Below, in pieces: positions 7,076-34,733 of a DNA stretch of 59,995 bases; position 1 is the first letter of the stretch; each line of letters starts with the position of its first letter. The stretch lies in contig NZ_JALPTB010000042.1 in the NCBI RefSeq assembly GCF_023218075.1, forward strand, positions 1 through 59,995. Reading direction: 5' to 3'. The stretch comes from Rhodococcus sp. HM1. GTDB taxonomy: Bacteria; Actinomycetota; Actinomycetes; Mycobacteriales; Mycobacteriaceae. Both the position numbers and the translations under genes were made by a program. The notes beneath the pieces were generated by a model, which saw only the letters and a program-made list of their open reading frames with translations, was not told the origin of the DNA and made no database searches.

Positions 7076-8265
7076 GCGCCCCGTTGACCACGACACGTGC
7101 GATCGGGCTCGTCGCGCGACGCGAGTTCGTCACTCAGGTTCGGAAGAAGAGCTTCGTCGTCAGCAACGCGATCGTGCTCGTCGCGATCGTGGTGGGCATC
7201 GTCGCGATGTCGATCTTCGGCGGATCCGACGACGACCGGCCCACCGTCGGTGTCGTCGCCGCGCCGCAGCTGAGCGCAGCACTCGGCGCGATCGGCGACG
7301 CCACCGGCATGCCGCTGGAGATCTCCGAAGTACCGGACGGCGATACGGGTCGCGCACAGGTCTCCGCGGGCGAACTCGACGTCGTGCTGATCCCCCGCGA
7401 GCCCGCGGGCGTCACCGCCGTCACCGAATCGAATATCGACGCCGGGCTGAAGACCGTTCTCGATGCCGCGGTCGCGCAGGACGCGCAGTCGGCGGCACTG
7501 ACCGAACGCGGAGTCGATCCCGCCGAGATCGCCGACGCCACCGCGCGATCGACCGTCGTCGTCGAAGCGATCGACCCGCCCGATCCGGAGCAGGGTCAGC
7601 GAGTCGTCCTGTCGATCGTCGCCGTGGTGTTGCTGTACATGCAGATCCTGATGTTCGGCATGTACGTCGCCATGGGGGTCGTCGAGGAGAAGTCCTCGCG
7701 CGTCGTCGAACTGCTCCTGTCGACGCTGCGCCCGCTGCAGTTGTTGTGGGGCAAGATCATCGGCATCGGTGCCGTCGGCCTGCTGCAGCTCGCCGCGTAC
7801 GGCCTCGTGGGTGTCGGAGCCGCCCTGGCCACCGACACCCTCACCATCACCGGCACCGCACTCGGGGTGTTCGCGAGCACACTCGGCTGGTTCGTCCTCG
7901 GATTCGCGTTCTTCGCGGTGCTCTACGCCGCCGCCGGGTCGATGGTGTCGCGGCAGGAGGATGTCAACTCCACCTCCGGTCCGTTGATGATGATCATCCT
8001 CGCGATGTTCTTCGCCGCGTTCTCGTCCGTCGACGATCCCGACGCCACGTGGAGCACGGTACTGAGCTGGATTCCGCCGTTCTCGGCGATCCTCATGCCG
8101 CTGCGGATCGCGGCCGGCGTCGCATCACCGTTCCAGATCGTCGGCACGATCGTGCTCATGATCGTGGTCACCGCGCTCCTCGCTGTCGTGGCGGCGAAGA
8201 TCTACCAGCGTTCGATCCTGCGGATCGGCCGCACGGTCACGTGGAAGGAAGCTCTCGGGCGGTGA
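7072..8265 (+). CDS. ABC-2 type permease (NatB-like)
   Basis: A 397-residue membrane subunit. One helix lies near residues 28-46, a large extracytoplasmic domain spans about 50-180 (DDRPTVGVVAAPQ, FGGSDDD), and five helices follow. The segment MYVAMGVVEEKSSRVVELLL is the conserved ABC2_membrane_3 signature between helices, typical of NatB/YhaP permeases. It forms an exporter with the preceding ATPase. Its last 141 bases are read on the opposite strand by the 3' end of the carboxymuconolactone decarboxylase-like gene, an unusual convergent overlap; the permease C-terminus (RIGRTVTWKEALGR) looks normal for the family. Confidence 0.9.
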   Translation: MSAPLTTTRAIGLVARREFVTQVRKKSFVVSNAIVLVAIVVGIVAMSIFGGSDDDRPTVGVVAAPQLSAALGAIGDATGMPLEISEVPDGDTGRAQVSAGELDVVLIPREPAGVTAVTESNIDAGLKTVLDAAVAQDAQSAALTERGVDPAEIADATARSTVVVEAIDPPDPEQGQRVVLSIVAVVLLYMQILMFGMYVAMGVVEEKSSRVVELLLSTLRPLQLLWGKIIGIGAVGLLQLAAYGLVGVGAALATDTLTITGTALGVFASTLGWFVLGFAFFAVLYAAAGSMVSRQEDVNSTSGPLMMIILAMFFAAFSSVDDPDATWSTVLSWIPPFSAILMPLRIAAGVASPFQIVGTIVLMIVVTALLAVVAAKIYQRSILRIGRTVTWKEALGR

Positions 8266-8643
8266 CACCGGTCCCGAAGCAGCCCGACGTTCCATCTCCT
8301 CCACGAGGATGGGCACACCGATGTTGCAGGAGTGGATCCCGACCGTGGTCGCGAACTTCAGGACGTCGAGGATCGCCTCGGGTTCCACGCCGAGTTCGAG
8401 TGCGGCACGGATGTGGCGCCGCACGCCGGGCGCATACATGTGCAGGCAACTGGCGTCCACCGCGATGCACAGGAGCTGGATCTCCCGGGGCGTGAGCGAG
8501 CCGGACTCCAGCGGCTGCATGGCCGCGGCCATGTACTGCTCGGTCCACGCCGGGTCCATCCGGTCCAGGTCGTCCCACAGCGGATTCCAGAAACCCTCGT
8601 CCCGCATGCGTTCCACGGTCGGGCGGGTTCCCGGGCCGGTCAC
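8125..8643 (-). CDS. Carboxymuconolactone decarboxylase / AhpD-like protein
   Basis: A 172-residue protein. The CMD domain covers about residues 15-115: FWNPLWDDLDRMDPAWTEQY, LTPREIQLLCIAVDASCLHM, then the VRRHIRAALELG helix. It has a C-x-H arrangement (ASCLH) and not the AhpD CxxC, so a peroxidase function is doubtful; relatives decarboxylate or isomerise ring-cleavage products or have unknown roles. The GTG at 8643 overlaps the stop of the CoA ligase gene (GTGA). The last about 47 residues, rich in Arg, Asp and His, are encoded antisense to the ABC permease and look like run-on sequence after loss of the original stop. It is the last gene of the catabolic operon. Confidence 0.8.
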   Translation of the reverse strand: MTGPGTRPTVERMRDEGFWNPLWDDLDRMDPAWTEQYMAAAMQPLESGSLTPREIQLLCIAVDASCLHMYAPGVRRHIRAALELGVEPEAILDVLKFATTVGIHSCNIGVPILVEEMERRAASGPVSPPESFLPRDRAADPQDRTLVDLRRHDSEERGDHDHEHDRADDLER

Positions 8644-10223
8644 GACACACCCGCCTGCGTCGACGAGGCGGACTCGACCAGCGCCCGCTTGAGGATCTTC
8701 CCGGTGGCGGTCATGGGCAGGACGGCCGTGAACTCGATCCGGCGCGGATACTTGTACGCCGCCATCTGCTCCTTGCACCAGTCGATCAGCTCGGCCTCGC
8801 CGAGTCGTTCTCCCGCCTCGGGGATGACGAATGCCTTGACCTCCTCACCGTGCCGCTCGTCGGGGACTCCGACGACCGCGGCCAGCGAGACCGACGGGTG
8901 GTTCATCAGCACCTCCTCGATCTCTCGCGGGTAGACGTTGAACCCACCCCGGACGATGAGGTCCTTGGCCCGGTCGACGATGTAGTAGAAGCCGTCGTCG
9001 TCCCTGCGGGCGAGGTCGCCGGTGCGGAACCAGCCGTCGCGCATCACCTCTGCCGTCGCTTCGGGCCGGTCCAGATAGCCCTTCATGACGTTGTGCCCGC
9101 GCAGCACGAGTTCACCGACCGTGTCGGGCCCGGTCACGGGATTCCCGTCCTCGTCGACGAGCATCGCCTCGATCCCCCACACCGGAACCCCGATCGAACC
9201 GGGCCGCGGCTCCCGCTCGGGGTCGCTGAACATCGCCAAGGGCGACGTCTCCGACAGGCCGTAGCCCTCGAGGATTCCGATGCCGAAGCGCTCGGCGAAC
9301 CGGGTCAGGATCTCCACGGGCAGCGCCGCCCCACCGGAGATCGCCCGGCGGAGTGTGCGGGCGATCCGCTCCACGTCGACGGACTCGTCCACCGCGCCGA
9401 GCAGCGCCCAATACATCGTCGGGACACCCGCGAACACGGTGACCGACTCCGCGAGCATGAGATCCAGGGCGGCCTTCGCCTCGAACCGGGGCATGAGCAC
9501 CAGCGTTGCACCGACCGACAACCCGGCGTTCATCGTCACCGTCTGCCCGAACGAGTGGAACAGCGGCAGCGTGAGCAGGTAGGTGTCGTGGCGAACCGGA
9601 TTGCTGTCGAACAGGCGGTTCGCGGTCAGTGCGTTGAGGACCATGTTCGCGTGCGTGAGTTCCGCGCCCTTCGGCCGGCCGGTGGTTCCGCTCGTGTAGA
9701 GCACGACCGCGGTGTCGGTCGGGCAGCGCACCACGGCACCGGTCCCGACCACCCAGTCCGGGTCGACGACGGGTCGCGCATCGCTTCCGTCGGCCGTCGT
9801 CACCACATCCGAATCCGCGGAGAGAAAGAGGATTTCGCGACAGCCGTCCGCTTCCGCGAAGGCGGACCGACCGTACTCGCCCGTCGGCAGCTCGTCCGTG
9901 CCCTCGAAGCAGAAGTAGAGGGCTGCGCCGGAATCGTTCAGGTGGTAGGCGATCTCGCGGGGCTTGAGCAGGGTGTTCAGCGGCACCACCACGCCGCCGG
10001 CCTTGAGGATGCCGTAGTACACGGCGGGAAACGCAGGAATGTTCGGGCACGTCAGCGCAATTCGTTCGCCGGGCCGGATACCGCGGTCGATCAGCAGAGC
10101 CGCGATTCGGTCGGCGCGGACATCGAGTTCGGCGTAGGTCAGCCGCTCGGTGCCGTGGACCAGCGCGACCCTGTCCGGGTAGCGGCGAGCGGAATCCTCG
10201 AGAAGCACGGAAAGATTGAACAT
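8640..10223 (-). CDS. Acyl-CoA ligase (AMP-forming, FadD-like)
   Basis: A 527-residue adenylate-forming enzyme. Motifs in order: YTSGTTGRPKGAELTHANMV (P-loop, about residues 170-190), GYGLSETSPLAMF (A5), WFRTGDLARRDDDGFYYIVD (A7), RAKDLIVRGGFNVYPREIE (A8) and the catalytic Lys in TGKILKRALV (A10). It should activate a carboxylic acid to its acyl-CoA in the cytoplasm. The ATG at 10223 is chosen because family members begin MFNLSVLLEDSARRYPDR; a GTG at 10274 that overlaps the upstream stop (GTGA) is an alternative adding 17 residues. In the operon it probably activates the product of the hydrolase or oxygenase, or the imported acid. Confidence 0.9.
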   Translation of the reverse strand: MFNLSVLLEDSARRYPDRVALVHGTERLTYAELDVRADRIAALLIDRGIRPGERIALTCPNIPAFPAVYYGILKAGGVVVPLNTLLKPREIAYHLNDSGAALYFCFEGTDELPTGEYGRSAFAEADGCREILFLSADSDVVTTADGSDARPVVDPDWVVGTGAVVRCPTDTAVVLYTSGTTGRPKGAELTHANMVLNALTANRLFDSNPVRHDTYLLTLPLFHSFGQTVTMNAGLSVGATLVLMPRFEAKAALDLMLAESVTVFAGVPTMYWALLGAVDESVDVERIARTLRRAISGGAALPVEILTRFAERFGIGILEGYGLSETSPLAMFSDPEREPRPGSIGVPVWGIEAMLVDEDGNPVTGPDTVGELVLRGHNVMKGYLDRPEATAEVMRDGWFRTGDLARRDDDGFYYIVDRAKDLIVRGGFNVYPREIEEVLMNHPSVSLAAVVGVPDERHGEEVKAFVIPEAGERLGEAELIDWCKEQMAAYKYPRRIEFTAVLPMTATGKILKRALVESASSTQAGVS

Positions 10224-10270
10224 GGGATGGGTAGATCCTGTCGTTGCGGTGTGTGATGCCCCGGAAGCAC

Positions 10271-10864
10271 TCACTTGGCCTGTGAGAGCACCGGACTCGT
10301 GTCGTCGATCAGCTCCTGCAGCAGCGTCTCGGCGGCGGACCAGAAGCCGTATCCGGCTGCGGGATTCAGATGCCCGACGTCACCGAGATCGACCAGGCGG
10401 CTCCCCCACGCCTCGGCCATTCCGGCGACCCGGCGGAAGCCGGCGAGCGGGTCGTTGCGGCTGGCCGCGACGATGCTCGGGAACGGCAGGGTACGGCGGG
10501 GAATCGGGGTCCATCCCCCGTGTTCGAGTTCGTCCGTCGTCGGATATCCGGCCGGCAGTGGCAGTTCGACGTCCGCGGGGGTCGCGAGCAGTGCCCCTTG
10601 GATCGGGCGGGTCGAATTCTGTGCCCAGTGGACGGTGGTGACGACGCCGGCGCTGTGCGCGACGAGCACCACCGGCCCGGCGGTGTCGGCGAGAACGGCG
10701 TCGAGGGCAGCGACGCGGGCGGCGCGATCGAGTTTGTGGTGTTCGAGCGGCGGCACGATGCGGGCGTCGTCGAGTCGTTCGGCGAGGAGGGTCTGCCAGT
10801 GGTCGGCGACATGGTCGCGCAGGCCGGGCACGATGACCACGGTCGGGGACGAAGAAGTGTTCAC
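10271..10864 (-). CDS. RBBP9/YdeN-type alpha/beta hydrolase
   Basis: A 197-residue serine hydrolase of the DUF1234/RBBP9 family. The opening VVIVPGLRDHVADHWQTLL is characteristic. The likely catalytic residues are Ser71 (VAHSAGV), Asp138 (RNDPLAGF) and His165 (GDVGHLNP). No signal peptide is present. Substrates of bacterial members are mostly unknown small esters or amides. It lies between the transporter and the CoA ligase of the catabolic operon, so it may hydrolyse an ester, lactone or thioester intermediate. The ATG at 10864 is the first in-frame start. Confidence 0.87.
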   Translation of the reverse strand: MNTSSSPTVVIVPGLRDHVADHWQTLLAERLDDARIVPPLEHHKLDRAARVAALDAVLADTAGPVVLVAHSAGVVTTVHWAQNSTRPIQGALLATPADVELPLPAGYPTTDELEHGGWTPIPRRTLPFPSIVAASRNDPLAGFRRVAGMAEAWGSRLVDLGDVGHLNPAAGYGFWSAAETLLQELIDDTSPVLSQAK

Positions 10865-10900
10865 AGGGAGCTCCGGGGGTCGTCGACGTACGGTTCGGGG

Positions 10901-12235
10901 TCAGCTGACCTGGACGGCGCGGTCACGCAGCTCGGCGAAGCGGCGCAGACCCGCCGGATACAGCCGCTTGCCTGCGATCAGCGCGACGATGGCGACGACG
11001 TAGATCAGCGGCGCCAGCTGCAGGGCGCCGACGAGGCCGAGGCGGTCGGCGAGGATGCCGATGACGAACGGCCCCAGCGCGAGGCCGAGCAGGTTGTTCG
11101 CGACGGTGAGGGTGCCCATGGCCGAGGCACGGACCGAGGAATGGGTGAGGTTGGCGACCATCGCGGCCGTCGGGCCGGACGATCCTGCCGAGAAGAATGC
11201 GCCGATGCCGAGGAGCACCAATTGTGCGGTGCCTGCTTCGAGACGGAACGCCGCGACCAAGGTCACCAGCGAGATCGCGCAGTAGACGATGGCGGTGGTC
11301 CACTTCCGGGCGATGTCCAGGCGCCCGACGCGGTCGGTGATCACGCCGCAGACGACCATGCCGCTGCCGATGAGGAGCACGACGATCGCTGCTGCGGCGG
11401 CGGCCTTGTCGGGAGCGAGGCCGTAGTACCGGTTGAAGAAGCTGGGTGTCCACGAGAGCAGGACCGCCGCGGTGAACATCTGCAGGCCGCCACCGGCGTA
11501 GGCGCACAGCACCGCGGGGTTGGTGAACAGGCTCGACACGGGAGCCCGGAAGCCGTCCGGCGGTGAGGCGACCTTCGTGTCGGGAGCGTCGTCGACCGAG
11601 TACCGCGCCAGTTTCCGTTCGCTGACGAGTGCGCGGAAGAGCGCCACGAGGAGAAGCCCGAACACTGCCATCGCGGCGAACGACCACCGCCAGCTCAGAT
11701 GCACGGCGATCAGACCGCCGAGCGCGACACCGACGACCGAGCCGAACGAACCGCCTGCCATGAATGCGCCGCTGAGGGTCGCGTGGATCCGCGGGGCGAA
11801 CACGCTCAGGACCAATGCGATTCCGACGCTGCCGTAGGCCGCTTCACCGACACCGACGAGGAACCGGGCGCCGAGCATCTGCTCGTAGTTGCTCGCGACC
11901 GCGCACAGCAATGTGGCGGCGGACCACAACGTGGCCATGAGCACCAGGCTCTTGACGCGACCCCACCGGTCGGCGAGCAGCGACAACGGGAGGGTGAGCA
12001 ACCCGACCATGAGCGCGACGACGCTCGTCAGCGAGGCAAGTTCCGAATCGGCCAGCGCCCATTCGGATTTGAGGAAGGGGAAGACGGCGCTGAGGACCTG
12101 ACGCGACATGTAGTCGGAGAGCAGGAGGCCGAAGGTGAGCGCGAAGACGATCCACGGGTAGGCCCGTGAGCGGGTGCGCGGTCCGGCGACGGTGGCGTCC
12201 GGATCGGCGACAGTGGTGGTGGTGTGCAGTCCCAT
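10901..12235 (-). CDS. MFS transporter, probable organic-acid importer
   Basis: A 444-residue protein with 12 predicted membrane helices. The MFS signature appears between helices 2 and 3 (LLADRWGRVKSLVLMA) and again in the second half (GVITDRVGRLDIARK). The ATG at 12235 is preceded by AGGAG at good spacing; a longer frame to 12298 lacks such a site. It sits inside the catabolic operon, which suggests it imports the pathway substrate. The family (spinster/anion-cation symporter-like) includes carriers of aromatic and other organic acids. Export is possible but less likely given the context. Confidence 0.88.
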   Translation of the reverse strand: MGLHTTTTVADPDATVAGPRTRSRAYPWIVFALTFGLLLSDYMSRQVLSAVFPFLKSEWALADSELASLTSVVALMVGLLTLPLSLLADRWGRVKSLVLMATLWSAATLLCAVASNYEQMLGARFLVGVGEAAYGSVGIALVLSVFAPRIHATLSGAFMAGGSFGSVVGVALGGLIAVHLSWRWSFAAMAVFGLLLVALFRALVSERKLARYSVDDAPDTKVASPPDGFRAPVSSLFTNPAVLCAYAGGGLQMFTAAVLLSWTPSFFNRYYGLAPDKAAAAAAIVVLLIGSGMVVCGVITDRVGRLDIARKWTTAIVYCAISLVTLVAAFRLEAGTAQLVLLGIGAFFSAGSSGPTAAMVANLTHSSVRASAMGTLTVANNLLGLALGPFVIGILADRLGLVGALQLAPLIYVVAIVALIAGKRLYPAGLRRFAELRDRAVQVS

Positions 12236-12342
12236 GGGTGCTCCTGGGGAGACGGTTCGGTGAGTGGGGACTCGGCGGGCGGTGCGGTCCCGGGGCACGA
12301 TGCGAGTGCGTGCCCCGGAACCGCTGGGTGTAGCGAGGTCGA

Positions 12343-13395
12343 TCAGGCGTGCTGTGTGAAGCCGACCTGCCCGGGGCGACGGTTGGGCGCGTAGCCGAGC
12401 TTGGCGAGGGTTTCGTCGGCGTCGCGGTAGGTTTCGCCGATCTTGTAGATGTCGCGGGCCTCCTTGCCGGTGGCGACCTCACGGCCGAGTTCGCCGGCGA
12501 TCCGGACGAGCTGCTGGATCTGCTGGACCGAGGTCATCTTCTGGCCCTTGCGACCCCAGAGGGTGTCCTCGTTGCCGCACCGGGTGTGCAGACCCATCGC
12601 GATCGCCATCGCGTTGACGGGAAGCACCGAGCGCATGAGGGTTTCGAGGGTCAGGCACGCACCGTCGGGGACGCGCTGGATGAAGTTCATGATGTTGTAC
12701 GGGTTGGGGCCGTCGAAGCCGCCGCCGATGCCCACCCACGTGAGGTTGAGGGGTCCGGTGTAGACGCCACGGCGGATGAGCCGTTCGACGGTCTCGAGCT
12801 GCGGGATGCTCGACAGCTGGAAGTGCGGCTGGATACCCGCCGCCTGCAGGCGGCGCAGGTGCTCCTCGACCCACTCGGGTCCGGCGGGCACCGTCATCTC
12901 GCGGTAGGTCGTGGCCAGCTCCGGGCGTTCCATCGAGGTACCCGCGATGTCGTCGGCGGTCATCAGTTCCATGATGTTCATCTGCGAGGTGTTGATCGCG
13001 ATGGTCACCTGATCCGGCTTCGGGTCGAGCTCGGCGAGCATGTGCCGCACGTCGTCGTCCAGCCACTTCGCTTCGGCGCCTTCACCTTCCGGAGCGAAGG
13101 AGATCGAGCCACCGACCTGCAGGATCATGTCCGGCACGGCCTCGCGCAGGCCGGCGAGAAGCTCGTTGAACTTCGACAGTCGCTTCGAGCCCTTGCCGTC
13201 GAGTTCGCGAACGTGGATGTGCAGCACCGTCGCGCCGGCCTCGTAGCAGTCCACGGCCTGCTGGATATGCTGCTCCATGGTCAGCGGCAGGTCTTCGGGA
13301 AAGTCGGAGGGTTCCCACTCCGGGCCGTAGGGGGCCGCGGTGATGACCAGCTTCTCCTGGCACTCGGGGAACAGGGCGTCGTCATGGAAATGCAT
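12343..13395 (-). CDS. Beta-keto acid cleavage enzyme (BKACE, DUF849)
   Basis: A 350-residue TIM-barrel enzyme, longer than the usual 275-310. The zinc-binding HxH is visible in VLHIHVRE, and the conserved late motif appears as RCGNEDTLW, with the metal-ligand Glu. Other family signals are LVITAAPYG at the start and NLTWVGIGGG in the middle. Characterised members condense a beta-keto acid with acetyl-CoA and cleave it to acetoacetate and a new acyl-CoA. The specific keto acid depends on pocket residues I cannot read with certainty. It is the carbon-carbon bond-breaking step of the operon. The extra residues include an N-terminal MHFHDDALFPECQEK segment. Confidence 0.9.
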   Translation of the reverse strand: MHFHDDALFPECQEKLVITAAPYGPEWEPSDFPEDLPLTMEQHIQQAVDCYEAGATVLHIHVRELDGKGSKRLSKFNELLAGLREAVPDMILQVGGSISFAPEGEGAEAKWLDDDVRHMLAELDPKPDQVTIAINTSQMNIMELMTADDIAGTSMERPELATTYREMTVPAGPEWVEEHLRRLQAAGIQPHFQLSSIPQLETVERLIRRGVYTGPLNLTWVGIGGGFDGPNPYNIMNFIQRVPDGACLTLETLMRSVLPVNAMAIAMGLHTRCGNEDTLWGRKGQKMTSVQQIQQLVRIAGELGREVATGKEARDIYKIGETYRDADETLAKLGYAPNRRPGQVGFTQHA

Positions 13396-13435
13396 GGGAG
13401 GTCTCCGTATCGGTATCGGTGGGATCGGGGGAAGG

Positions 13436-14326
13436 TCAGAAGGGGCGGTCGCCGACGATTCCGGCGCGTTCCATCCTGCGGACGGCCGGCCAGTAGTCCT
13501 GGACCGCGTAGTGCTGGGTGGATCGGTTGTCCCAGATGGCGATGCTGTTCCGGGTCCACCGCCAGCGCACCTGGTACTCGGGGATCGCCGCCTGGGATGT
13601 CAGGTAGCGCAACAGTTCTCCGGCGCCGGGCGCGTAGTCGCAACCGAATCGCACGTTCTCGGGGGTGTGGTAGTTGACCAGGTGCGTCGTGAAGGAATTG
13701 ACGAACAGGATCTTCTCGCCGGTTTCCGGGTGGGTGCGAACCACCGGGTGCTCGGCGTCGGGGAACTGCGCGTGCAGCGCATGCCGCTTCTCCGTCGACA
13801 GTGCCGCACCGAAACTCGACTCGATGCTGTGCCGCGCGCGCAGGCCGGCGATCTTGTCCTTCACCGCATCCGGCAGACGACGGTAGGCCTCGACCATGTT
13901 CACCCAGATGGTGTCGCCACCGACGGGAGGTGTCTCCACGCACCGGAGCACGCAACCCATCGGCGGGTTCTCCCGCCACGTGGCGTCGCAGTGATAGGCG
14001 TTCTCGTAGTGCTCGGGCGCGCTGTCGAGATCCTTGTAGATCCGAACCAGGCCGGGATGCTCGGGGTGGCTTCCGAGGACGGGGTGGTCCTCGAGTGCAC
14101 CGAATCGTTCTGCGAGAGCGACGTGTTCGGCGCAGGTGATGTCCTGGTCCCGGAAGAAAAGCACCTTGTGCTCGAGGAGCAGCGCGCGGAGCTGGGCGAA
14201 CAGCGTCTCGTCGCGGGCGACGTCACCGAGGTACACGCCGGACAGTTCGGCGCCGATCGTCGCGGTGAGCCGCTCGACCCGGAATGCGGTGCGGGTGTCG
14301 CCGGCCGGAGGGAGCGTTGTGGTCAT
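13436..14326 (-). CDS. TauD/TfdA-family Fe(II)/2-oxoglutarate dioxygenase
   Basis: A 296-residue dioxygenase. The iron facial triad is His112 and Asp114 (YHCDATW) and His272 (STQHYAV); the 2-oxoglutarate-binding Arg is in AVRRMERA (about residue 284). The block WTRNSIAIWDNRSTQHYA is typical of TauD/TfdA. Members hydroxylate an unactivated carbon of taurine, aryloxyalkanoates, alkyl sulfates or betaines, often releasing a group from the hydroxylated carbon. Here the product could feed the oxidoreductase and BKACE. It lies 40 bases before the BKACE start in the same operon. The substrate is unknown. Confidence 0.92.
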   Translation of the reverse strand: MTTTLPPAGDTRTAFRVERLTATIGAELSGVYLGDVARDETLFAQLRALLLEHKVLFFRDQDITCAEHVALAERFGALEDHPVLGSHPEHPGLVRIYKDLDSAPEHYENAYHCDATWRENPPMGCVLRCVETPPVGGDTIWVNMVEAYRRLPDAVKDKIAGLRARHSIESSFGAALSTEKRHALHAQFPDAEHPVVRTHPETGEKILFVNSFTTHLVNYHTPENVRFGCDYAPGAGELLRYLTSQAAIPEYQVRWRWTRNSIAIWDNRSTQHYAVQDYWPAVRRMERAGIVGDRPF

Positions 14327-14352
14327 GGGAGTGTCCTTCGAGGTGGTGCAGA

Positions 14353-15327
14353 TCAGAGGGTGAAGACCGAAGAGCCGATGCTGCGGCCGGATTCGATGTC
14401 GCGGTGCGCGCGGACGGCGTCGTCGAGCCCGTACCGCTGGTTGATCTCGATGATGATGTCGCCCGCCGCGACGTGCGAGAAGAGCTCGCCGGCGAGTTCG
14501 GCTCGCTCGGCCGGGTCTGCGATGTAGTCCGCCAGCGCGGGGCGGGTCACGTACAGCGAGCCCTTGATCGCGAGCTGCATGGCGTCGATCGGGGGGATCG
14601 GCCCCGAGGCGGTACCGAAGCAGACCAGCAGACCCCGGCGGGCGAGCGAGTTCAGCGACGTCTCGTAGGTGGTGGCGCCGATGCTGTCGAACACCACCGG
14701 GACACCCTTGCCGTCGGTGAGTTCGTGGACGCGGGTGGCGACGTCCTCACGGGTGTAGAGGATCACCTCGTCGCATCCGTGCGCCCGGGCGATCTCGGCC
14801 TTCTCCTCCGTGGACACGGTCCCGATGACCTTGATTCCCAACAGCTTCGCCCACTGGGTGAAGATCAGGCCGACACCGCCGGCGGCGGCGTGGAGCAGAA
14901 CCGTGTCGCCCGCCGAGAGCGGCCGGATCCGGCGCAGCAGGTAGGAGGTGGTCAGTCCGCGCATCGTCATCGCCGCGGCGGTCTCGAACGGGATCGCGTC
15001 GGGCAGATGGATGAGATGCTCGGCGGGCATCACGCGCTCGGTGCTGTAGGCGCCGAGAGGGCTGCCGGTGTAGGTGACGCGGTCGCCGGGTGCGAAGTCC
15101 TCGACGCCGGCGCCGACCGCCTCGACCACTCCGGCGGCCTCGACGCCCATGCCTGCCGGCAGCGGCGCGGGGTACAGGCCGGTGCGGAAGTAGGTGTCGG
15201 CGAAGTTCATGCCGACGGCCTCGTGACGGATGCGGACCTCGCCCGGTCCTGGGTCTCCGACCTCGACGGCCTCCCAGGTGAGGACCTCGGGGCCACCGGT
15301 TTCGTAGAAGCGAACGGCTTTCGCCAC
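14353..15327 (-). CDS. NADPH:quinone oxidoreductase-like MDR protein
   Basis: A 324-residue zinc-free medium-chain dehydrogenase/reductase. It begins with FYETGGPEVLTWEAVEVGDP, has NFADTYFRTGLYP, and the cofactor loop HAAAGGVGLIFTQWAKLLG, where AAGGVG is the NADPH motif of quinone reductases. No structural or catalytic zinc ligands are seen. It would reduce a quinone or an enone, or interconvert an alcohol and ketone in the pathway. It is the first gene of the minus-strand catabolic operon and starts 233 bases from the divergent AraC regulator. Confidence 0.9.
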   Translation of the reverse strand: MAKAVRFYETGGPEVLTWEAVEVGDPGPGEVRIRHEAVGMNFADTYFRTGLYPAPLPAGMGVEAAGVVEAVGAGVEDFAPGDRVTYTGSPLGAYSTERVMPAEHLIHLPDAIPFETAAAMTMRGLTTSYLLRRIRPLSAGDTVLLHAAAGGVGLIFTQWAKLLGIKVIGTVSTEEKAEIARAHGCDEVILYTREDVATRVHELTDGKGVPVVFDSIGATTYETSLNSLARRGLLVCFGTASGPIPPIDAMQLAIKGSLYVTRPALADYIADPAERAELAGELFSHVAAGDIIIEINQRYGLDDAVRAHRDIESGRSIGSSVFTL

Positions 15328-15503
15328 GGTATCTCCTTCACGGCCGCACCGGGTCGCAGACGGGCTGCGACAGGTGGGACCCGGTTTCGGGGTGCGTTCG
15401 ATCCCGTTGCGGGATCGCGGAATTCACCGACGCTGTGCGTGTCCGGCTCCGGTGTTCGTGGAGCCGATCTCTGTGATGTGACTAACACTAGTGGGCTCCC
15501 GAC

Positions 15504-15550
15504 CCCTATGCTTATCCCTATGGGACATGACCCTGTTCATTTCGGGACAT
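15504..15550. promoter_or_regulatory. Direct repeats upstream of the AraC regulator, candidate operator
   Basis: GGGACAT occurs at 15522-15528 and again at 15544-15550, 22 bases apart or about two helical turns. CCCTATG occurs at 15504-15510 and 15516-15522, abutting the first GGGACAT. AraC-type regulators commonly bind such direct repeats on one face of the helix. The block lies within 60 bases of the regulator start and about 180 bases from the operon start, so it could serve both divergent promoters. It is defined by repetition only. Confidence 0.45.
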
Positions 15551-15560
15551 CGGTGACGAC

Positions 15561-16583
15561 ATGAAGCCACTCGCCCGCTATGCATCGCTCAACAACTACG
15601 TCGAGCTCGCCCACTCGGCCGGACTCGAACCCGCCGGCATGATCCGCGACGTCGGCCTGGATCCCGCCGGTCTCGGTCTCCAGGACCGCTGGGTGCCGGC
15701 GTCGGCCATCGCAACCCTGCTCGAGAACTCGGCGACGGCGTCCGGCCGGCAGGACTTCGGCATCGCGCTCGCCGGACTGCGCCGCTTCTCCAATCTCGGC
15801 CCGTTGAGCCTGGTCGTCCGCGAGGAACCCGATGTCCGCAGCGCCGTGAAGATGCTCGTGCGCTACCAGCACATGTACAACGAGGCCCTGAGGACCCACA
15901 TCAGCGAGAACGGCGGGATCACGACCCTGCGCGTCGAACTCGACGTGGGCGTGCCCGGCGACTTCCCCCAATCGATCGACCTGGCCGTCGGGGTGCTGCA
16001 CCAGCTACTGAAGGGATTCCTGGGCCGGACCTGGCGGCCGCTCTCGGTGTCCTTCACCCGTCCCGCACCCCACGATCCGGCTCCCTATCGCCGGATGTTC
16101 GGAACCGAGGTGCTCTTCGCCGAGAGATTCGACGGAATATCCCTGTACACCAAGGATCTCGACGCACCGAACGCCATGTCGGATCCGCTGCTGCGTCCCT
16201 ACACCCGGAAGATTCTCGAAGGAGTCGACGCGCGCGAGGACGTCACCACCCTGAGCAGGGTCCGCGAGCTGATCGAACTCCTGCTGCCCACCGGACGGTG
16301 CTCGGCCGAGCAGGTCGCCCGGAGCCTGGGCGTCGATCGCCGAACCGTGCACCGCAAACTCGCCGAAGAGGGTCATACGTTCTCGTCGGTGCTCGATTCC
16401 ACCCGCGCCGAACTGGCCTCGCACATGGTGGGCAACACCCGGTACTCGCTCACCGAGGTCTCCGAACTTCTCGGGTTCTCCTCCCCCGCGAACTTCTCCC
16501 GCTGGTTCCGAAAGCAGTTCGGCCGCAGCCCGAGCCAATGGCGATCCGAGACCATAGGGGGCAGGTCCACCGAACCCGAGTGA
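15561..16583 (+). CDS. AraC-family regulator of the catabolic operon
   Basis: A 340-residue protein. Residues about 10-200 form an Arabinose_bd-type (OruR/ArgR-like) ligand domain (LARYASLNNYVELAHSAGLE; LVRYQHMYNEAL). The C-terminal about 100 residues carry the double helix-turn-helix: EQVARSLGVDRRTVHRKLAE and YSLTEVSELLGFSSPANFSR, then WFRKQFGRSPSQWR. It is divergent from the operon whose first gene starts at 15327, which is typical for an activator induced by the pathway substrate. Direct repeats between the genes are candidate binding sites. Confidence 0.9.
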   Translation: MKPLARYASLNNYVELAHSAGLEPAGMIRDVGLDPAGLGLQDRWVPASAIATLLENSATASGRQDFGIALAGLRRFSNLGPLSLVVREEPDVRSAVKMLVRYQHMYNEALRTHISENGGITTLRVELDVGVPGDFPQSIDLAVGVLHQLLKGFLGRTWRPLSVSFTRPAPHDPAPYRRMFGTEVLFAERFDGISLYTKDLDAPNAMSDPLLRPYTRKILEGVDAREDVTTLSRVRELIELLLPTGRCSAEQVARSLGVDRRTVHRKLAEEGHTFSSVLDSTRAELASHMVGNTRYSLTEVSELLGFSSPANFSRWFRKQFGRSPSQWRSETIGGRSTEPE

Positions 16584-16656: not shown

Positions 16657-17715
16657 ATGGTTCTCTCCCCCACCGTCGCTACCACGCCTCCGATCCGGAC
16701 GCGTCTGCGAACTCCGTTGCCGGGTCTCGCATTCTGCGCCGTGGGTGCCGCCGCGGCACTCGGCATCGCCCGACTGTCCGGCATCAGCCCGCTGCTGATC
16801 GCGATCGTCCTCGGAGCGACGATCACCAATTTCTTTGCGCTACCGTCCTTCACGGCGCCCGGTATCGCGGTCGCCTCGAAACGGCTGCTGCGCATCGGAG
16901 TGGCACTTCTGGGCCTGCAACTGCTGCTCTCCGATGTTCTCGGCCTCGGCTGGGGCGTGCTCGCCCTCGCCGCCGCCGTGGTGGTGGGTGGGATCGCCGG
17001 CACAATGGCCGTGGGACGGCTTCTCGGCATGGAGTGGGGCGAACGCCTGCTCATCGCGTGCGGCTTCTCCATCTGCGGCGCCGCCGCGGTCGCGGCCGTC
17101 GAAGGGGTGACCGCAGCCCGAAAACAGCATGTCGTCACGGCCGTGGCGCTGGTGGTCGTGTTCGGGACCGCCATGATCCCCGGACTCCCGTTCGCCGCGT
17201 CGCTGCTGGGGCTCGACACGACTCGGGCCGGCATCTGGGCGGGCGCTGCCGTCCACGAGGTGGCGCAGGTCGTGGCGACCGGCGGCGCGATCGATGCCGG
17301 CCGTCTCGGAACGGCCGGGGCGAGCGCCCTCGCGGTCGCCGTCACCGTCAAACTCGCCCGTGTCGCGCTCCTCGCACCCGTGGTCGCGTGGATCGGTGTC
17401 GCCTCCCGCCGTCGCAGCACCACGGACGGCCCCGCCGGGCGGCCACCGCTGGTTCCGCTCTTCCTGCTCGGATTCGTCGGGTTCGTGGCGTTGCGGGCGA
17501 CCGGACTGCTGCCCGACCCGGCGCTCGACCTCGCACGACTCGCCCAGACCGCCCTGCTCACCACCGCGATGTTCGCGCTCGGCACCGGGGTGAAGGTCTC
17601 CGTCCTCCGCGGGGTCGGCTGGCGCCCGTTCGTCCTCGCGACCGTCTCCACCGTCTGGGTCTCGGCGATCGCACTCGGCGGTGTCCTTCTCCTCGGCCTC
17701 GAACCGATCGTGTGA
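16657..17715 (+). CDS. YeiH-family putative sulfate exporter
   Basis: A 352-residue membrane protein with about ten helices. The family signatures are visible: LLRIGVALLGLQL, the GFSICGAAAVAAVEG block and VHEVAQVVATGG. YeiH/YadS proteins are annotated as putative sulfate exporters, and some are linked to taurine or sulfonate metabolism, but direct evidence is limited. The gene starts 73 bases after the AraC stop. If the neighbouring dioxygenase released sulfite or sulfate, an anion exporter would fit; this is speculation. Confidence 0.85.
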   Translation: MVLSPTVATTPPIRTRLRTPLPGLAFCAVGAAAALGIARLSGISPLLIAIVLGATITNFFALPSFTAPGIAVASKRLLRIGVALLGLQLLLSDVLGLGWGVLALAAAVVVGGIAGTMAVGRLLGMEWGERLLIACGFSICGAAAVAAVEGVTAARKQHVVTAVALVVVFGTAMIPGLPFAASLLGLDTTRAGIWAGAAVHEVAQVVATGGAIDAGRLGTAGASALAVAVTVKLARVALLAPVVAWIGVASRRRSTTDGPAGRPPLVPLFLLGFVGFVALRATGLLPDPALDLARLAQTALLTTAMFALGTGVKVSVLRGVGWRPFVLATVSTVWVSAIALGGVLLLGLEPIV

Positions 17716-17735: not shown

Positions 17736-18527
17736 TCAGTCGAGGTAGCGCTGTAGCGGCGTCGATTCCGGCTGATCGAGCCGCCAGAATGTGCCGCCGT
17801 CGCAGGTTACGGTGTCGCCGCTGATGAAGCTTGCGACCGCGCGGGCGGCGGTCGTCGGGTCCGGAAATCGTCGGCCCTCCATCGGACCGGCCGTGATCTC
17901 GAGGGTGCCGGTAGCCGGGTCGAACCGGCCCTTGACGCGGTAACCGCCCCGGTCGGCGATCACCCGCAGCCGCAGGTCCTCGACGACCTCGGGTTCGACC
18001 GACTTGCGCACCGCACCGGCACTTGCCTTCTTCGCACGGTTGCGGGCGCACCGCTCGGCCTCGGCCTCGGCCGCGTCGTCGTCGGTGTACAGAGTGGTGT
18101 CCTTGGCTGCTGCCAAGCCGAGCAGGTCCCAGCAGTCCTTGCCGTGGACGACGCTGCTGAGGGGGATGGCGTGACTGCCTGTGTGTGTCCGGCCGGGGAC
18201 ATCCGCCATCCAGAGGTCCACCTCGGCGGCGATGCCCGCCGCGACCTCGTCGGAAGGCAACACGAAGTAGCCCGCCGGGTCGCTTCCCAGGTCGACGAAC
18301 ACCCAGAACTGCGAGCCGGTGTCGTCGGTGTCGGGCAGGGCATCCTGCCGTCTGGCCTGCCAGTCCCCGTCGATCCTGGTCCGGACGCGGACGATGCGGC
18401 TGTTTCCGTCCGCACCCAGGACCTCGACCGGGGTGCGCGGCAGGTGGTCGAGCCGCTCGGCGCGGCCTCCACGCTGGATGACCTCGGAGATGAAGGCTTG
18501 GATCCCTCGACCGGCAGTGTCGTGCAC
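17736..18527 (-). CDS. Hypothetical nuclease-like protein with a restriction-associated C-terminal domain
   Basis: About 263 residues from a proposed GTG at 18527; the start is uncertain because the frame stays open to 19223 but upstream residues do not look coding. Residues about 10-115 (RAERLDHLPRTPVEVL, VRVRTRIDGDWQARR, SQFWVFVDLG, then WDLLGL) resemble PD-(D/E)XK-like domains of small restriction-linked proteins, though the usual catalytic Lys appears as Arg (VRTR). The C-terminus (PEVVEDLRLRVIADRGG, DPTTAARAVASF, CDGGTFWRL) resembles DUF4357/RAMA domains tied to DNA modification. It is divergent from accD3 with a 208-base gap and converges with YeiH. No partner methylase is nearby. Confidence 0.6.
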   Translation of the reverse strand: MHDTAGRGIQAFISEVIQRGGRAERLDHLPRTPVEVLGADGNSRIVRVRTRIDGDWQARRQDALPDTDDTGSQFWVFVDLGSDPAGYFVLPSDEVAAGIAAEVDLWMADVPGRTHTGSHAIPLSSVVHGKDCWDLLGLAAAKDTTLYTDDDAAEAEAERCARNRAKKASAGAVRKSVEPEVVEDLRLRVIADRGGYRVKGRFDPATGTLEITAGPMEGRRFPDPTTAARAVASFISGDTVTCDGGTFWRLDQPESTPLQRYLD

Positions 18528-18735
18528 TCGACTGCGTCCATTTCTGTGTCGCGACCCGTACGCCTCGGTGAGCTGTGTTGCGACGGGTCTACGCGGCACG
18601 ACTCGGGTTACTGCACCCACAGTACGGGCACGGGGTGCGGCCACCACAGGACGCGTCGGCATCGGGTGGGTCGGGCCGAGTACCGGGCGACCACTCCGGT
18701 ATAGCTTGACACCAGGAACGACAGGTGGAGGCGAC

Positions 18736-20241
18736 GTGGCCGGCAGCAAAATCTCCGCACGGGAGTTCATCGACAGCGTCCTCGACGAGGGCAGTTTCGT
18801 CTCCTGGGACACGACACCCGTCGACGTCGGCGCCGACGAGACGTACCGCGCCGAACTCGCTCGTGCGGCCGAGCGTTCCGGCGTCGACGAATCGGTGATC
18901 ACCGGTATCGGCACGGTGCACGGCCGTCCCATCGCGATCATCGCGTGCGAGTTCGCGTTCCTGGCCGGGTCGATCGGGGTGGCCGCGTCCGAGCGCATCG
19001 TGTCGGCGATCGAACGCGCCACCGCCGAAGGGGTGCCGCTGCTCGCGTCCCCCACCTCCGGCGGCACCCGCATGCAGGAGGGCACGCTCGCGTTCGTGCA
19101 GATGGTGAAGATCGCCGCCGCGGTCGCCGCGCACAAGGCCGCGCACCTCGGATACCTGGTGTACCTGCGCAATCCGACCACCGGCGGGGTGTTCGCGTCG
19201 TGGGGTTCGCTCGGCCACATCACCGCCGCCGAACCCGGTGCGCTCGTCGGCTTCCTCGGACCGCGCGTCTACAAGGCGCTGTACCACGAGGAATTCCCGC
19301 CGGGCGTGCAGACCGCCGAGAACCTGTCCGCCAACGGCGTGATCGACGGGGTGGCACCGCTCGAGGCCGTGCGACGGCTCGTGCACCGCACGCTGCGGGT
19401 GCTGGTCGAGCCGAGCAGCCCGGACGAGGGCGCCGAGGCGGCCGTCACGGACATCGACGAGGTGCCGGATGTGCCCGCGTGGCAGTCGGTGATCCTGTCC
19501 CGCCGTCCCGAACGACCCGGGATCCGGCAGTTGCTGCGGCACGCCGCGTCGGCGCAGGTACCGCTGTCCGGCACCGGTCAGGGCGAGGCCGACAAGACGG
19601 TGCTGCTCTCGCTCGCCCGGTTCCGGGGCGTGTCGTGCGTGCTGTTCGGTCAGGACCGCAGCGGCCAGTCCGCCGCGCTGACGATGGGGCCGGGTGCGCT
19701 GCGCGAGGCGCGTCGCGCGATGCGGCTCGCCGACGAATTGCGGCTGCCGCTGGTGCTGGTCATCGACACCCTCGGGGCTTCGCTGTCGCGTGAGGCCGAG
19801 GAGAAGGGACTCGCACCGGAGATCGCCCGGTGCATAGCCGATCTGGTGACTCTGCCGACCCCGACGGTGTCTGTGCTGCTCGGTCAGGGCACCGGCGGGG
19901 GCGCCCTGGCGCTGCTGCCCGCCGACCGCGTGCTGTGTGCGCAGAACGGCTGGCTGGCGCCGCTGCCGCCGGAGGGTGCGAGCGCGATCGTGCACCGCGA
20001 CACGACGCACGCGCCGCAGATGGCCGCCGCGCAAGGAGTTCGCTCACGAGATCTGTTGCGCCACGGCATAGTCGACGGTGTGATTCCCGAATTCCCGGAT
20101 GCTACAGAAGAACCCACGGAGTTCGTGAAGCGGGTCGGCGCGGCCGTGGCCGTCGAACTGGGCGATCTGGCGAGCGAACCCGCCGATACGAGGTACGCGC
20201 GGCGCCTCGAACGCTACCGCCGGCTGGGGTTGCCCGACTGA
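18736..20241 (+). CDS. accD3: Acyl-CoA carboxylase carboxyltransferase subunit, AccD3-type
   Basis: A 501-residue single-chain carboxyltransferase. The N-half (about 20-240) is the AccD-like crotonase domain (SPTSGGTRMQEGTLAFVQM; LGHITAAEPGALVGFLGPRV). The C-half (about 290-480) is AccA-like (IDTLGASLSREAEEKGL; LLGQGTGGGALALL). There is no N-terminal zinc ribbon. Length and layout match mycobacterial AccD3 (Rv0904c, about 495 residues). It transfers carboxybiotin to an acyl-CoA, probably acetyl-CoA, with a separate biotinylated alpha subunit not in this window. The GTG at 18736 is preceded by GGAGG. In M. tuberculosis the gene adjoins prrA; here they are 11 kb apart. Confidence 0.87.
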   Translation: MAGSKISAREFIDSVLDEGSFVSWDTTPVDVGADETYRAELARAAERSGVDESVITGIGTVHGRPIAIIACEFAFLAGSIGVAASERIVSAIERATAEGVPLLASPTSGGTRMQEGTLAFVQMVKIAAAVAAHKAAHLGYLVYLRNPTTGGVFASWGSLGHITAAEPGALVGFLGPRVYKALYHEEFPPGVQTAENLSANGVIDGVAPLEAVRRLVHRTLRVLVEPSSPDEGAEAAVTDIDEVPDVPAWQSVILSRRPERPGIRQLLRHAASAQVPLSGTGQGEADKTVLLSLARFRGVSCVLFGQDRSGQSAALTMGPGALREARRAMRLADELRLPLVLVIDTLGASLSREAEEKGLAPEIARCIADLVTLPTPTVSVLLGQGTGGGALALLPADRVLCAQNGWLAPLPPEGASAIVHRDTTHAPQMAAAQGVRSRDLLRHGIVDGVIPEFPDATEEPTEFVKRVGAAVAVELGDLASEPADTRYARRLERYRRLGLPD

Positions 20242-34010: not shown

Positions 34011-34733
34011 CTAGTTGGTGCCCAGCAGATCGATGATGAACACCAGCGTCTTGCCGCCGAGCGGATGCCCGGAACCGGCGGGACCGTACGCGAGCTCCGG
34101 CGGGACCGTGAGCTTGCGGCGGCCACCGACCTTCATGCCGGGGATGCCTTCCTGCCAGCCCGGGATCAGACGCCCGAGCGGGAACTTCACGGACTCGCCG
34201 CGGCTGAACGACGAGTCGAACACGTCGTTCGTGTCGTACTCGACGCCGTGGTAGTGCACGTCCACGACCGCGCCGGGCTGCGCCTCGGCACCGTCACCGA
34301 CGGTGATGTCCTCGACGACCAGTTCGGTCGGGGCCGGACCGGTGGCCGGTTCGACGACCGGCACCGCCGGCGGCACCTTCACATCGAGCAGGTCGATGAC
34401 GAACACCAGCGTCTTGCCCGAGAGCCGGTGGCCGGATCCGGCCGGGCCGTAGGCGAGCTCCGGCGGGATCGTCAGCTGACGACGGCCGCCGACCTTCATG
34501 CCCGGGATGCCTTCCTGCCACCCGGCGATCAGGCCGGCCAGCGGGAAGGTGATGGACTCACCGCGGTTCCACGACGAATCGAACTCCTCGCCGGTGTCGA
34601 ACTCGACACCGACGTAGTGAACCTCGACCTTCGCGCCGGGGGTGGCCTCGGCACCGTCACCGACCGTGAGGTCCTTGATGACCAGCTCGGTGGGTGCGGG
34701 ACCGTCCTGGAACTCGATCTCCGGCTTGCTCAT
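34011..34733 (-). CDS. Tandem-domain FKBP-type peptidyl-prolyl isomerase
   Basis: A 240-residue protein made of two FKBP domains (about residues 13-116 and 134-240) joined by a Pro/Val linker. The two share GWQEGIPGMKVGGRR and PPELAYGPAGSGH exactly, and FDSS-x-x-RGES, so they arose by internal duplication. Most actinobacterial cytoplasmic FKBPs have a single domain. No signal peptide is seen. It should speed proline isomerisation during folding. It lies 37 bases downstream of gltA on the same strand and may be co-transcribed. Confidence 0.92.
   Translation of the reverse strand: MSKPEIEFQDGPAPTELVIKDLTVGDGAEATPGAKVEVHYVGVEFDTGEEFDSSWNRGESITFPLAGLIAGWQEGIPGMKVGGRRQLTIPPELAYGPAGSGHRLSGKTLVFVIDLLDVKVPPAVPVVEPATGPAPTELVVEDITVGDGAEAQPGAVVDVHYHGVEYDTNDVFDSSFSRGESVKFPLGRLIPGWQEGIPGMKVGGRRKLTVPPELAYGPAGSGHPLGGKTLVFIIDLLGTN

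What the first reader, a model, noticed from the sequence alone, without database searches (positions are those of the whole stretch)
8125..16583. Seven-gene catabolic operon built around a BKACE and a Fe(II)/2OG dioxygenase, substrate unknown
On the minus strand, spacing from 8 to 107 bases or overlap links QOR-like reductase, TauD/TfdA dioxygenase, DUF849 beta-keto acid cleavage enzyme, MFS carrier, RBBP9-type hydrolase, acyl-CoA ligase and a CMD-like protein, with a divergent AraC regulator. I do not know a characterised pathway with this set. A plausible logic is import, hydroxylation, oxidation to a beta-keto acid, cleavage with acetyl-CoA to acetoacetate plus an acyl-CoA, and CoA handling. 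A quaternary amine, sulfonate or branched acid are candidates. Key catalytic residues are intact in all enzymes I checked (H112/D114/H272; HIH; ligase Lys), so the operon looks functional.
Basis: partly seen in the sequence, partly recalled or inferred. Interest (0 to 1): 0.75.

Follow-up and report, generated by a model that had tools for sequence, protein, structure and literature searches.

The report
Probable desulfonation operon with odd BKACE
A conserved set of bacterial genes, found in soil bacteria from two phyla, probably strips sulfur from an unidentified organic sulfonate or sulfate ester and cuts the remainder with an enzyme that lacks catalytic residues its known relatives use.

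Summary
The seven-gene minus-strand operon and its divergent AraC gene are real and not chance: QOR-TauD-DUF849 lie in that order in 70 of the 80 actinobacterial loci examined, and core genes recur on plasmids of Cupriavidus, Caballeronia, Azoarcus, Novosphingobium and Streptomyces. (1) A YeiH/PF03601 putative sulfate/sulfite exporter gene (16657-17715) follows AraC. YeiH lies within 10.5 kb of 9 of 15 DUF849 loci in 61 genomes, 0.11 expected, and the TauD keeps the taurine-contact residues H70 and R270 in 90 of 90 rows. This points to a sulfonate or sulfate ester. (2) The DUF849 protein keeps the zinc site, but the catalytic Glu of a tested BKACE is Gln193 and the Tyr said to be in all BKACEs is Ser195, so 'key residues intact' is wrong for it. 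Acetoacetate-activating genes beside it still argue for an acetoacetate-forming cleavage. TauD-less copies of the same DUF849, once identical within a genome, sit with other partners. Best reading: oxidative desulfonation feeding a beta-keto acid to a divergent BKACE; substrate unknown.

The parts
8125..8643 (-). CMD-like protein (172 aa)
   Evidence: PF02627 28.6 bits, cut-off 23; the one solved structure matched is 2q0t, 161 bits
8640..10274 (-). AMP-forming acyl-CoA ligase (544 aa)
   Evidence: PF00501 330 bits; K526 conserved in at least 97% of 40 rows; none of the best 25 NCBIfam families listed is over its cut-off
10271..10864 (-). RBBP9/YdeN-type serine hydrolase (197 aa)
   Evidence: PF06821 142 bits; S71, D138, H165 conserved in at least 97% of 77 rows
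10901..12298 (-). MFS transporter (465 aa; in-frame ATG at 12235)
   Evidence: PF07690 150 bits; in 76 of 80 loci
12343..13395 (-). DUF849/BKACE-fold enzyme (350 aa) with zinc site but without the canonical Glu and Tyr
13436..14326 (-). TauD/TfdA Fe(II)/2-oxoglutarate dioxygenase (296 aa), probable sulfonate or alkyl-sulfate dioxygenase
   Evidence: PF02668 223 bits; E. coli TauD is the best match that I know to be characterised, 186 bits; H81 and R287 (TauD H70, R270) in 90 of 90 rows
14353..15327 (-). QOR-like zinc-free MDR reductase (324 aa)
   Evidence: NF008024 363 bits, cut-off 348; kin include 2-haloacrylate reductase 1wly, 278 bits; in 70 of 70 loci with TauD and 0 of 10 without
15472..15549 (-). 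conserved control region upstream of QOR: GTCCC at 15548-15544 and 15526-15522, GGATAAGCAT 15517-15508, ACATCACA 15479-15472
   Evidence: alignment of 15 intergenic regions; exact GTCCC-N17-GTCCC within 450 bases upstream of QOR in 49 of 70 loci
15561..16583 (+). AraC-type regulator with Arabinose_bd domain, divergent
   Evidence: PF12625 135 bits, PF12833 64 bits; in 79 of 80 loci
16657..17715 (+). YeiH-family putative sulfate/sulfite exporter (352 aa), 73 bases after AraC
   Evidence: PF03601 205 bits; TIGR00698 146 bits, below its cut-off of 233; co-location

Best explanation
An inducible operon for using an organosulfonate (less likely an alkyl sulfate ester) as carbon source. Proposed order: MFS import; the TauD-type dioxygenase hydroxylates the carbon that bears the sulfonate, which then loses sulfite and leaves a carbonyl, here a beta-keto acid of the form R-CO-CH2-COO- (inferred); YeiH exports the sulfite or sulfate (inferred); the divergent DUF849 enzyme cleaves the beta-keto acid with acetyl-CoA to an acyl-CoA and acetoacetate (inferred, with an active site that cannot use the known Glu and Tyr); acetoacetate is activated by a CoA-transferase, near the operon in many relatives and in trans here (inferred), or by acetoacetate-CoA ligase. 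QOR probably reduces an alpha,beta-unsaturated acid or ketone belonging to the TauD branch, and the hydrolase opens an ester or thioester (guesses). AraC acts on the paired GTCCC boxes upstream of QOR (inferred). In some sister loci a short-chain dehydrogenase, perhaps acting on the matching beta-hydroxy acid, stands in place of the TauD branch.
For: Shown: gene set and order. YeiH within 10.5 kb of 9 of 15 DUF849 loci, 0.108 expected, on either side of the operon, and inside the Novosphingobium operon (PF03601 237 bits); YeiH at 50% or more identity in 13 of 70 loci with TauD, 0 of 10 without. TauD: iron triad, H81 and R287 in 90 of 90 rows; taurine hydrogen-bonds to His70 and Arg270 (PMC9304159, passages; that these hold the sulfonate end is recalled), and sulfate/sulfonate-binding residues are said to be shared by TauDs and type II sulfatases (PMC3675115, passages). 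Acetoacetate: CoA-transferase subunit A in 37 of 80 loci, NCBIfam over cut-off in the copy tested; acetoacetate-CoA ligase in L085; three strong and one weaker adjacent PF01144 pairs elsewhere in the own genome (their substrates were not tested). Two routes into one enzyme: same-genome DUF849 pairs L015/L016 350 of 350 identical, L052/L043 349 of 351, L071/L081 342 of 351, one of each in a TauD-less and one in a TauD locus. The operator pattern also occurs at TauD-less L012, L015, L021, L039 and L046.
Against: YeiH is absent from 6 of 15 loci, its substrate is unproven, the distance limits were set after seeing the data, and the genomes are related. No sulfite-oxidase-type gene (PF00174) lies near, and none of the listed TauE matches does (list truncated). 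The sulfur-binding residues are shared with alkyl sulfatases, and D94 and S158, amine-side residues of taurine dioxygenase, are largely kept as E/D and S/T. Distant dehydrogenases (28-34% identical to the SDR of L046) stand near TauD and DUF849 in some Cupriavidus copies, for example L098 and L127. QOR, CMD and the hydrolase have no clear place. The DUF849 lacks the Glu whose replacement by Leu kills BKACE15 and the Tyr, so the cleavage may not be the BKACE reaction. CoA-transferase and ligase co-occur in 23 of 70 TauD loci, and 22 of 70 have neither, which plain acetoacetate activation does not explain. In Caballeronia grimmiae propionate-cycle genes follow, unexplained.
Confidence: 0.45

Rival explanations
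1. Sulfur-free acid pathway: TauD hydroxylates an unsubstituted beta carbon, as gamma-butyrobetaine hydroxylase does, a dehydrogenase makes the beta-keto acid, and the DUF849 enzyme cleaves it. YeiH is a bystander or exports another anion.
For: Same logic as gamma-butyrobetaine to carnitine to dehydrocarnitine (recalled); DUF849 with an SDR in five TauD-less loci, and distant SDRs beside TauD and DUF849 in some Cupriavidus copies; SDR plus BKACE is the published deoxyribonate route (PMC6365646, passages); Glu26, aligned with a Kce glutamate that I recall as binding the amino group of its substrate, is kept in 95 of 99 rows; TauD D94 and S158 equivalents are E/D and S/T.
Against: YeiH co-location 9 of 15 against 0.11 expected; in the 70 actinobacterial TauD loci no SDR at 40% or more identity to that of L046 was found, and QOR is a zinc-free reductase family, not a known alcohol dehydrogenase; TauD keeps the H70 and R270 equivalents.
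Confidence: 0.3
2. Alkyl sulfate ester pathway: the TauD is a type II sulfatase like AtsK or Rv3406, leaving a ketone and sulfate, which YeiH exports.
For: Type II sulfatases share the sulfate/sulfonate-binding residues (PMC3675115, passages); Rv3406 and AtsK match at 128-140 bits; TIGR00698, the NCBI family of YeiH, is named a putative sulfate export transporter.
Against: E. coli TauD matches better, 186 bits; the type II sulfatase read about, Rv3406, serves sulfate scavenging, whereas an exporter implies surplus.
Confidence: 0.15
3. The DUF849 enzyme does non-BKACE chemistry (for example hydrolysis, decarboxylation, or acyl transfer as in BsfD), and the CoA-transferase acts on another 3-oxo acid. 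This can hold together with any of the other readings.
For: Gln193 and Ser195 in place of the Glu and Tyr; a Tyr-to-Phe relative, BsfD, does different chemistry (PMC12871164, a preprint, passages); two of the seven published DUF849 groups are 'not BKACE' as a whole (PMC4922564, passages); cis-epoxysuccinate hydrolase shares the fold.
Against: Zinc ligands, Arg272 and Asp277 in 99 of 99 rows; nearest solved relative by sequence and fold is Kce; acetoacetate-CoA ligase equivalog beside one copy.
Confidence: 0.3

Closest known systems
Canonical BKACE / 3-keto-5-aminohexanoate cleavage enzyme (CcaKce 2Y7D-G; BKACE15/PdKce 8RIP, 9HNF)
   Same: PF05853, TIM-barrel fold, zinc ligands H59, H61, E276 and the Arg and Asp near them
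   Different: Catalytic Glu171 (PdKce) is Gln193, Tyr173 is Ser195, two residues fewer before the GG of the loop near residue 95, about 350 instead of 270-310 residues; 26% identical to CcaKce over 242 aligned residues
Taurine dioxygenase TauD (1GQW) and type II alkyl sulfatases AtsK / Rv3406
   Same: iron triad, 2-oxoglutarate Arg, taurine-contact His and Arg, and E/D and S/T at the places of D94 and S158
   Different: Y73 and N95 are L/V/A and Y/F in nearly all rows; NF007104 241 bits, below its cut-off of 313; carbon-catabolic operon instead of a tauABCD-type set
Deoxyribonate pathway with SDR and BKACE (PMC6365646, passages)
   Same: a dehydrogenase makes a beta-keto acid, a DUF849 enzyme cleaves it, acetoacetate is activated
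   Different: no dioxygenase or sulfur in it; its BKACE is 61% identical to the assayed BKACE_178 (as stated there)
Carnitine / dehydrocarnitine route (recalled)
   Same: 2-oxoglutarate hydroxylase, then beta-keto acid, then BKACE
   Different: no carnitine dehydrogenase or betaine genes among the eight genes scanned; exporter linkage points to sulfur

Membership tests
Canonical BKACE | PF05853 domain over the curated cut-off | tested here: met
   213 bits against 24.8
Canonical BKACE | zinc ligands His, His, Glu | tested here: met
   H59, H61, E276 in 99 of 99 rows (the window's own gene counts twice, as window and L001)
Canonical BKACE | catalytic Glu (E171 PdKce, E143 CcaKce) | tested here: not met
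   aligns without gaps to Q193 against 2y7d, 3e02 and 8rio; Q 95, A 3, V 1, E 0 of 99; E171L inactive
Canonical BKACE | Tyr stated to be in all BKACE sequences (Y173 PdKce, Y145 CcaKce) | tested here: not met
   S195; S 71, A 15, T 7, Y 3, G 2, V 1 of 99 (statement from the preprint PMC12871164)
Canonical BKACE | beta-keto acid + acetyl-CoA to acyl-CoA + acetoacetate | not testable with these tools
   needs enzyme assay
Taurine/sulfonate dioxygenase (TauD) | HxD...H iron triad and 2-oxoglutarate Arg | tested here: met
   H112, D114, H272, R283 in 90 of 90 rows (the window's gene counts twice)
Taurine/sulfonate dioxygenase (TauD) | His70 and Arg270 taurine contacts | tested here: met
   H81, R287 in 90 of 90 rows; such residues are shared with type II sulfatases
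Taurine dioxygenase equivalog | NF007104 cut-off | tested here: not met
   241 against 313 bits
Taurine dioxygenase equivalog | amine-side residues Y73, D94, N95, S158 | tested here: inconclusive
   L84 and Y107 differ; E105 (E or D 87 of 90) and S171 (S or T 89 of 90) are kept (alignment gapped near D94/N95)
Type II alkyl sulfatase (AtsK) | sulfate, not sulfite, released | not testable with these tools
   needs assay
YeiH sulfate/sulfite exporter (PSE) | PF03601 | tested here: met
   205 bits against 24.5
YeiH sulfate/sulfite exporter (PSE) | TIGR00698 cut-off | tested here: not met
   146 against 233 bits
Carnitine degradation operon | carnitine dehydrogenase and betaine handling | tested here: inconclusive
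   none among the eight genes scanned with Pfam and NCBIfam; rest of genome not searched for it

The most novel reading that the evidence does not exclude
A widespread, undescribed carbon-catabolic route for a natural sulfonate in Actinomycetota and Pseudomonadota, in which oxidative desulfonation directly makes a beta-keto acid and a new class of DUF849 enzyme, using neither the Glu nor the Tyr of known BKACEs (perhaps the His191-x-Gln193 pair instead), carries out the cleavage.
Probability: 0.3. Interest if true: 0.8.

Novelty: new variant of a known kind. Interest (0 to 1): 0.6.

Why it matters
This clade is large (6364 database proteins at E <= 1e-20 among 7999 scored), and many of the 120 best listed are named '3-keto-5-aminohexanoate cleavage protein', although the 99 members aligned here lack the Glu, and nearly all the Tyr, on which that chemistry is said to rest; the name is probably misleading. 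If the sulfur link holds, the operon would be an undescribed sulfonate-to-acetyl-CoA route in common actinomycetes and Burkholderiales, and would give a testable function to an orphan DUF849 clade. It also offers a clean experiment on how a BKACE fold works without its base.

Tried and rejected
Substrate from operon logic alone: 3-sulfopropionate, sulfosuccinate, sulfoacetate, lignosulfonate-type and deoxyribonate-type acids were weighed; none is singled out by the data. Cleavage of malonate semialdehyde by BKACE is in print as an engineered reaction (PMC11961710, passages and one section) but does not mark this family. Quaternary amine: not the first choice, but not excluded, since two of four amine-side residues are kept. 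YeiH as chance neighbour: rejected by the count, with the caveats that genomes are related and the distance limits were set after seeing the data.

Controls: PF00174 has no match near the 15 loci (nearest on a shared contig 71 kb); PF01925/TauE, none near among the listed matches, but the list was truncated. The GTCCC-N17-GTCCC pattern is not unique: it occurs twice in the window, the second time near 34106. A single-sequence AlphaFold model was poor (pLDDT 43.6) and not used; the aligned model is moderate (pLDDT 62.1) and used for fold only. The zinc and active-site statements rest on sequence alignment.

Literature: no paper describing this gene set was seen in the listings (open-access library; one search listed 20 of 72 papers and 20 of 53, the rest unseen); one search was a look-up for TauD residues. 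Papers were seen as passages found by term (PMC11961710 also one section; the others PMC12871164, PMC4922564, PMC12133276, PMC6365646, PMC9304159, PMC11582611, PMC8557817, PMC3675115, PMC11852219). Bastard 2014 was not read, only its groups as retold in PMC4922564.

Full report
What is there. The window holds seven minus-strand genes, 8125-15327, with overlaps of 4 bases at two junctions and gaps of 26-44 bases at the others (CMD start taken at 8643), and a divergent AraC gene at 15561-16583. The genome (6.93 Mb, 247 contigs) has one PF05853 match, this one. TIGR00698, 'YeiH family putative sulfate export transporter', matches at 146 bits, below its cut-off of 233.

Conservation. A scan of one-genome-per-species contigs confirmed 220 places with a close relative of the DUF849 protein and kept the best 80, at 83-96% identity, in Rhodococcus, Prescottella, Nocardia, Gordonia, Tsukamurella, Mycolicibacter, Saccharopolyspora, Kutzneria and others. 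Searched with the window's proteins (anywhere within at most 21 kb, some loci shorter), of 80 loci: QOR 70, TauD 70, always together and in the order QOR-TauD-DUF849; RBBP9 67; MFS 76; AraC 79; CMD 39; the ligase 36; CoA-transferase subunits A 37 and B 36; all eight window genes 18. Dropped before these counts: matches under the per-gene identity limits (25-40%), then ligase matches under 55%, second-ligase matches under 60%, acyl-CoA dehydrogenase matches, and YeiH matches under 50% (13 loci over, 15 with any). Many species are close kin, so the loci are not independent. On plasmids the DUF849 protein was found in 24 records; 16 of these regions were read, and TauD lies in 15 of them: Cupriavidus, Caballeronia, Paraburkholderia, Azoarcus, Novosphingobium, Diaphorobacter, Streptomyces, Embleya, Rhodococcus, Tsukamurella. 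The exception is Ensifer, 48% identical, with CMD and VOC genes and an SDR nearby. Cupriavidus sp. P-10 has seven copies on one plasmid. In the Cupriavidus and Caballeronia paralogs read, QOR, TauD and RBBP9 recur, with tripartite-transporter binding proteins, porins, and in several loci distant SDRs (28-34% to that of L046), for example beside DUF849 and QOR in L098 and L121.

Sulfur. In 61 genomes (own plus 60 relatives) there are 15 DUF849 loci at E <= 1e-100 in 13 genomes. TauD at E <= 1e-90 gives 16 places in the same 13 genomes, one beside each of the 15 DUF849 loci and one extra. PF03601 occurs in 32 of 61 genomes. YeiH lies within 5 kb of 6 of the 15 loci and within 10.5 kb of 9; expected numbers from copy number and rounded genome size are 0.056 and 0.108 (Poisson 4e-11 and 5e-15; no correction for relatedness, limits chosen after seeing the data). 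Of the six genomes for which the side was computed, YeiH is on the TauD side in two and on the downstream side in four, so the link is not just one inherited arrangement. In Novosphingobium sp. ES2-1 a PF03601 gene (237 bits) starts 3 bases after MFS in the operon itself. Loci without TauD have no YeiH (0 of 10 against 13 of 70 at 50% identity). PF00174 (sulfite-oxidase type) is not near, nor is any listed TauE (list truncated). YeiH is a putative sulfate exporter and a candidate sulfite exporter (PMC11582611, passages), so sulfite and sulfate cannot be told apart from it.

The dioxygenase. The best match that I know to be characterised is E. coli TauD (186 bits); the entry 5vn6, named taurine dioxygenase, is much closer (459 bits), and I know of no characterisation of it. 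In 90 rows (the window's gene counted twice, as window and L001) the iron triad, the 2-oxoglutarate Arg, and the equivalents of H70 and R270 are invariant. Taurine hydrogen-bonds to His70 and Arg270 (PMC9304159, passages; that this is its sulfonate end is recalled), and sulfate/sulfonate-binding residues are said to be shared by TauDs and type II sulfatases (PMC3675115, passages). Of the amine-side residues, Y73 is L/V/A and N95 is Y/F in nearly all rows, while D94 is E or D in 87 and S158 S or T in 89 of 90 (the alignment is gapped near D94/N95). So: a sulfonate- or sulfate-type pocket that is not that of taurine dioxygenase; a nitrogen-bearing substrate is not excluded.

Two routes to one enzyme. 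Ten of the 80 loci lack TauD and QOR. Five of these have a short-chain dehydrogenase at 40% or more identity to that of L046; L052 and L071 have SsuA-like binding proteins (L052 scanned; L071 by likeness to it), and L052 a TauC/SsuC-like permease, all below NCBIfam cut-offs. In a tree the TauD-less DUF849 proteins lie at several places among the others, and in three genomes the TauD-less copy is nearly the TauD-operon copy: 350 of 350 (L015/L016, R. koreensis), 349 of 351 (L052/L043), 342 of 351 (L071/L081). The four other same-genome pairs compared were 81-94% identical (L074/L039 are both TauD-less). The simplest reading is one enzyme on one kind of intermediate, reached by desulfonation or by dehydrogenation of a hydroxy acid.

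Control. Upstream of QOR a block is conserved over 15 aligned loci: paired GTCCC boxes 22 bases apart, then GGATAAGCAT. The exact pair is present in 49 of 70 loci with QOR; 5 more fit a looser form and 16 do not. It is also found upstream of DUF849 and of the divergent genes in TauD-less L012, L015 and L021, upstream of MFS in L039 and L046, and next to AraC in L074, but not in L052, L065 or L080, and only elsewhere in L071. The pattern is short and occurs once more in the window, near 34106. An AraC operator is the likely meaning (inference).

What is not explained: the role of CMD, of QOR (kin to 2-haloacrylate reductase as well as quinone reductases) and of the hydrolase; why ligase and CoA-transferase co-occur in 23 of 70 TauD loci while 22 have neither; the propionate-cycle genes after the C. 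grimmiae operon; and the substrate.

Verdict. Observation confirmed; interpretation partly supported and sharpened towards a sulfonate; one supporting claim (intact BKACE residues) wrong. New variant of a known kind, interest 0.6.

Noticed in passing
L092 (Pseudomonas aeruginosa plasmid) and L100 (Paraburkholderia terrae plasmid): TauD relatives at 56-61% identity sit with a 2,4'-dihydroxyacetophenone dioxygenase-family gene, an alpha/beta hydrolase and AraC; no DUF849 is annotated in the 16-17 kb read: perhaps a related but different pathway.
   Followed up: no
L091, Rhodococcus opacus plasmid: TauD (63%), ligase (64%), an alpha/beta hydrolase, MFS (74%) and AraC together, with no DUF849 or QOR in the 17 kb read.
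   Followed up: no
L090 5537-11998: In Caballeronia grimmiae a small hypothetical gene, a Rieske protein and prpB-prpC-acnD-prpF follow the operon, hinting at propionyl-CoA as a product.
   Followed up: no
window 18319-20241: A carboxyl-transferase protein (PF01039 197 bits, PF03255 163 bits) lies just beyond YeiH.
   Followed up: no
W01, Cupriavidus sp. P-10 plasmid pMTS1: Seven DUF849-family copies on one plasmid, several with tripartite-transporter binding proteins and porins.
   Followed up: partly
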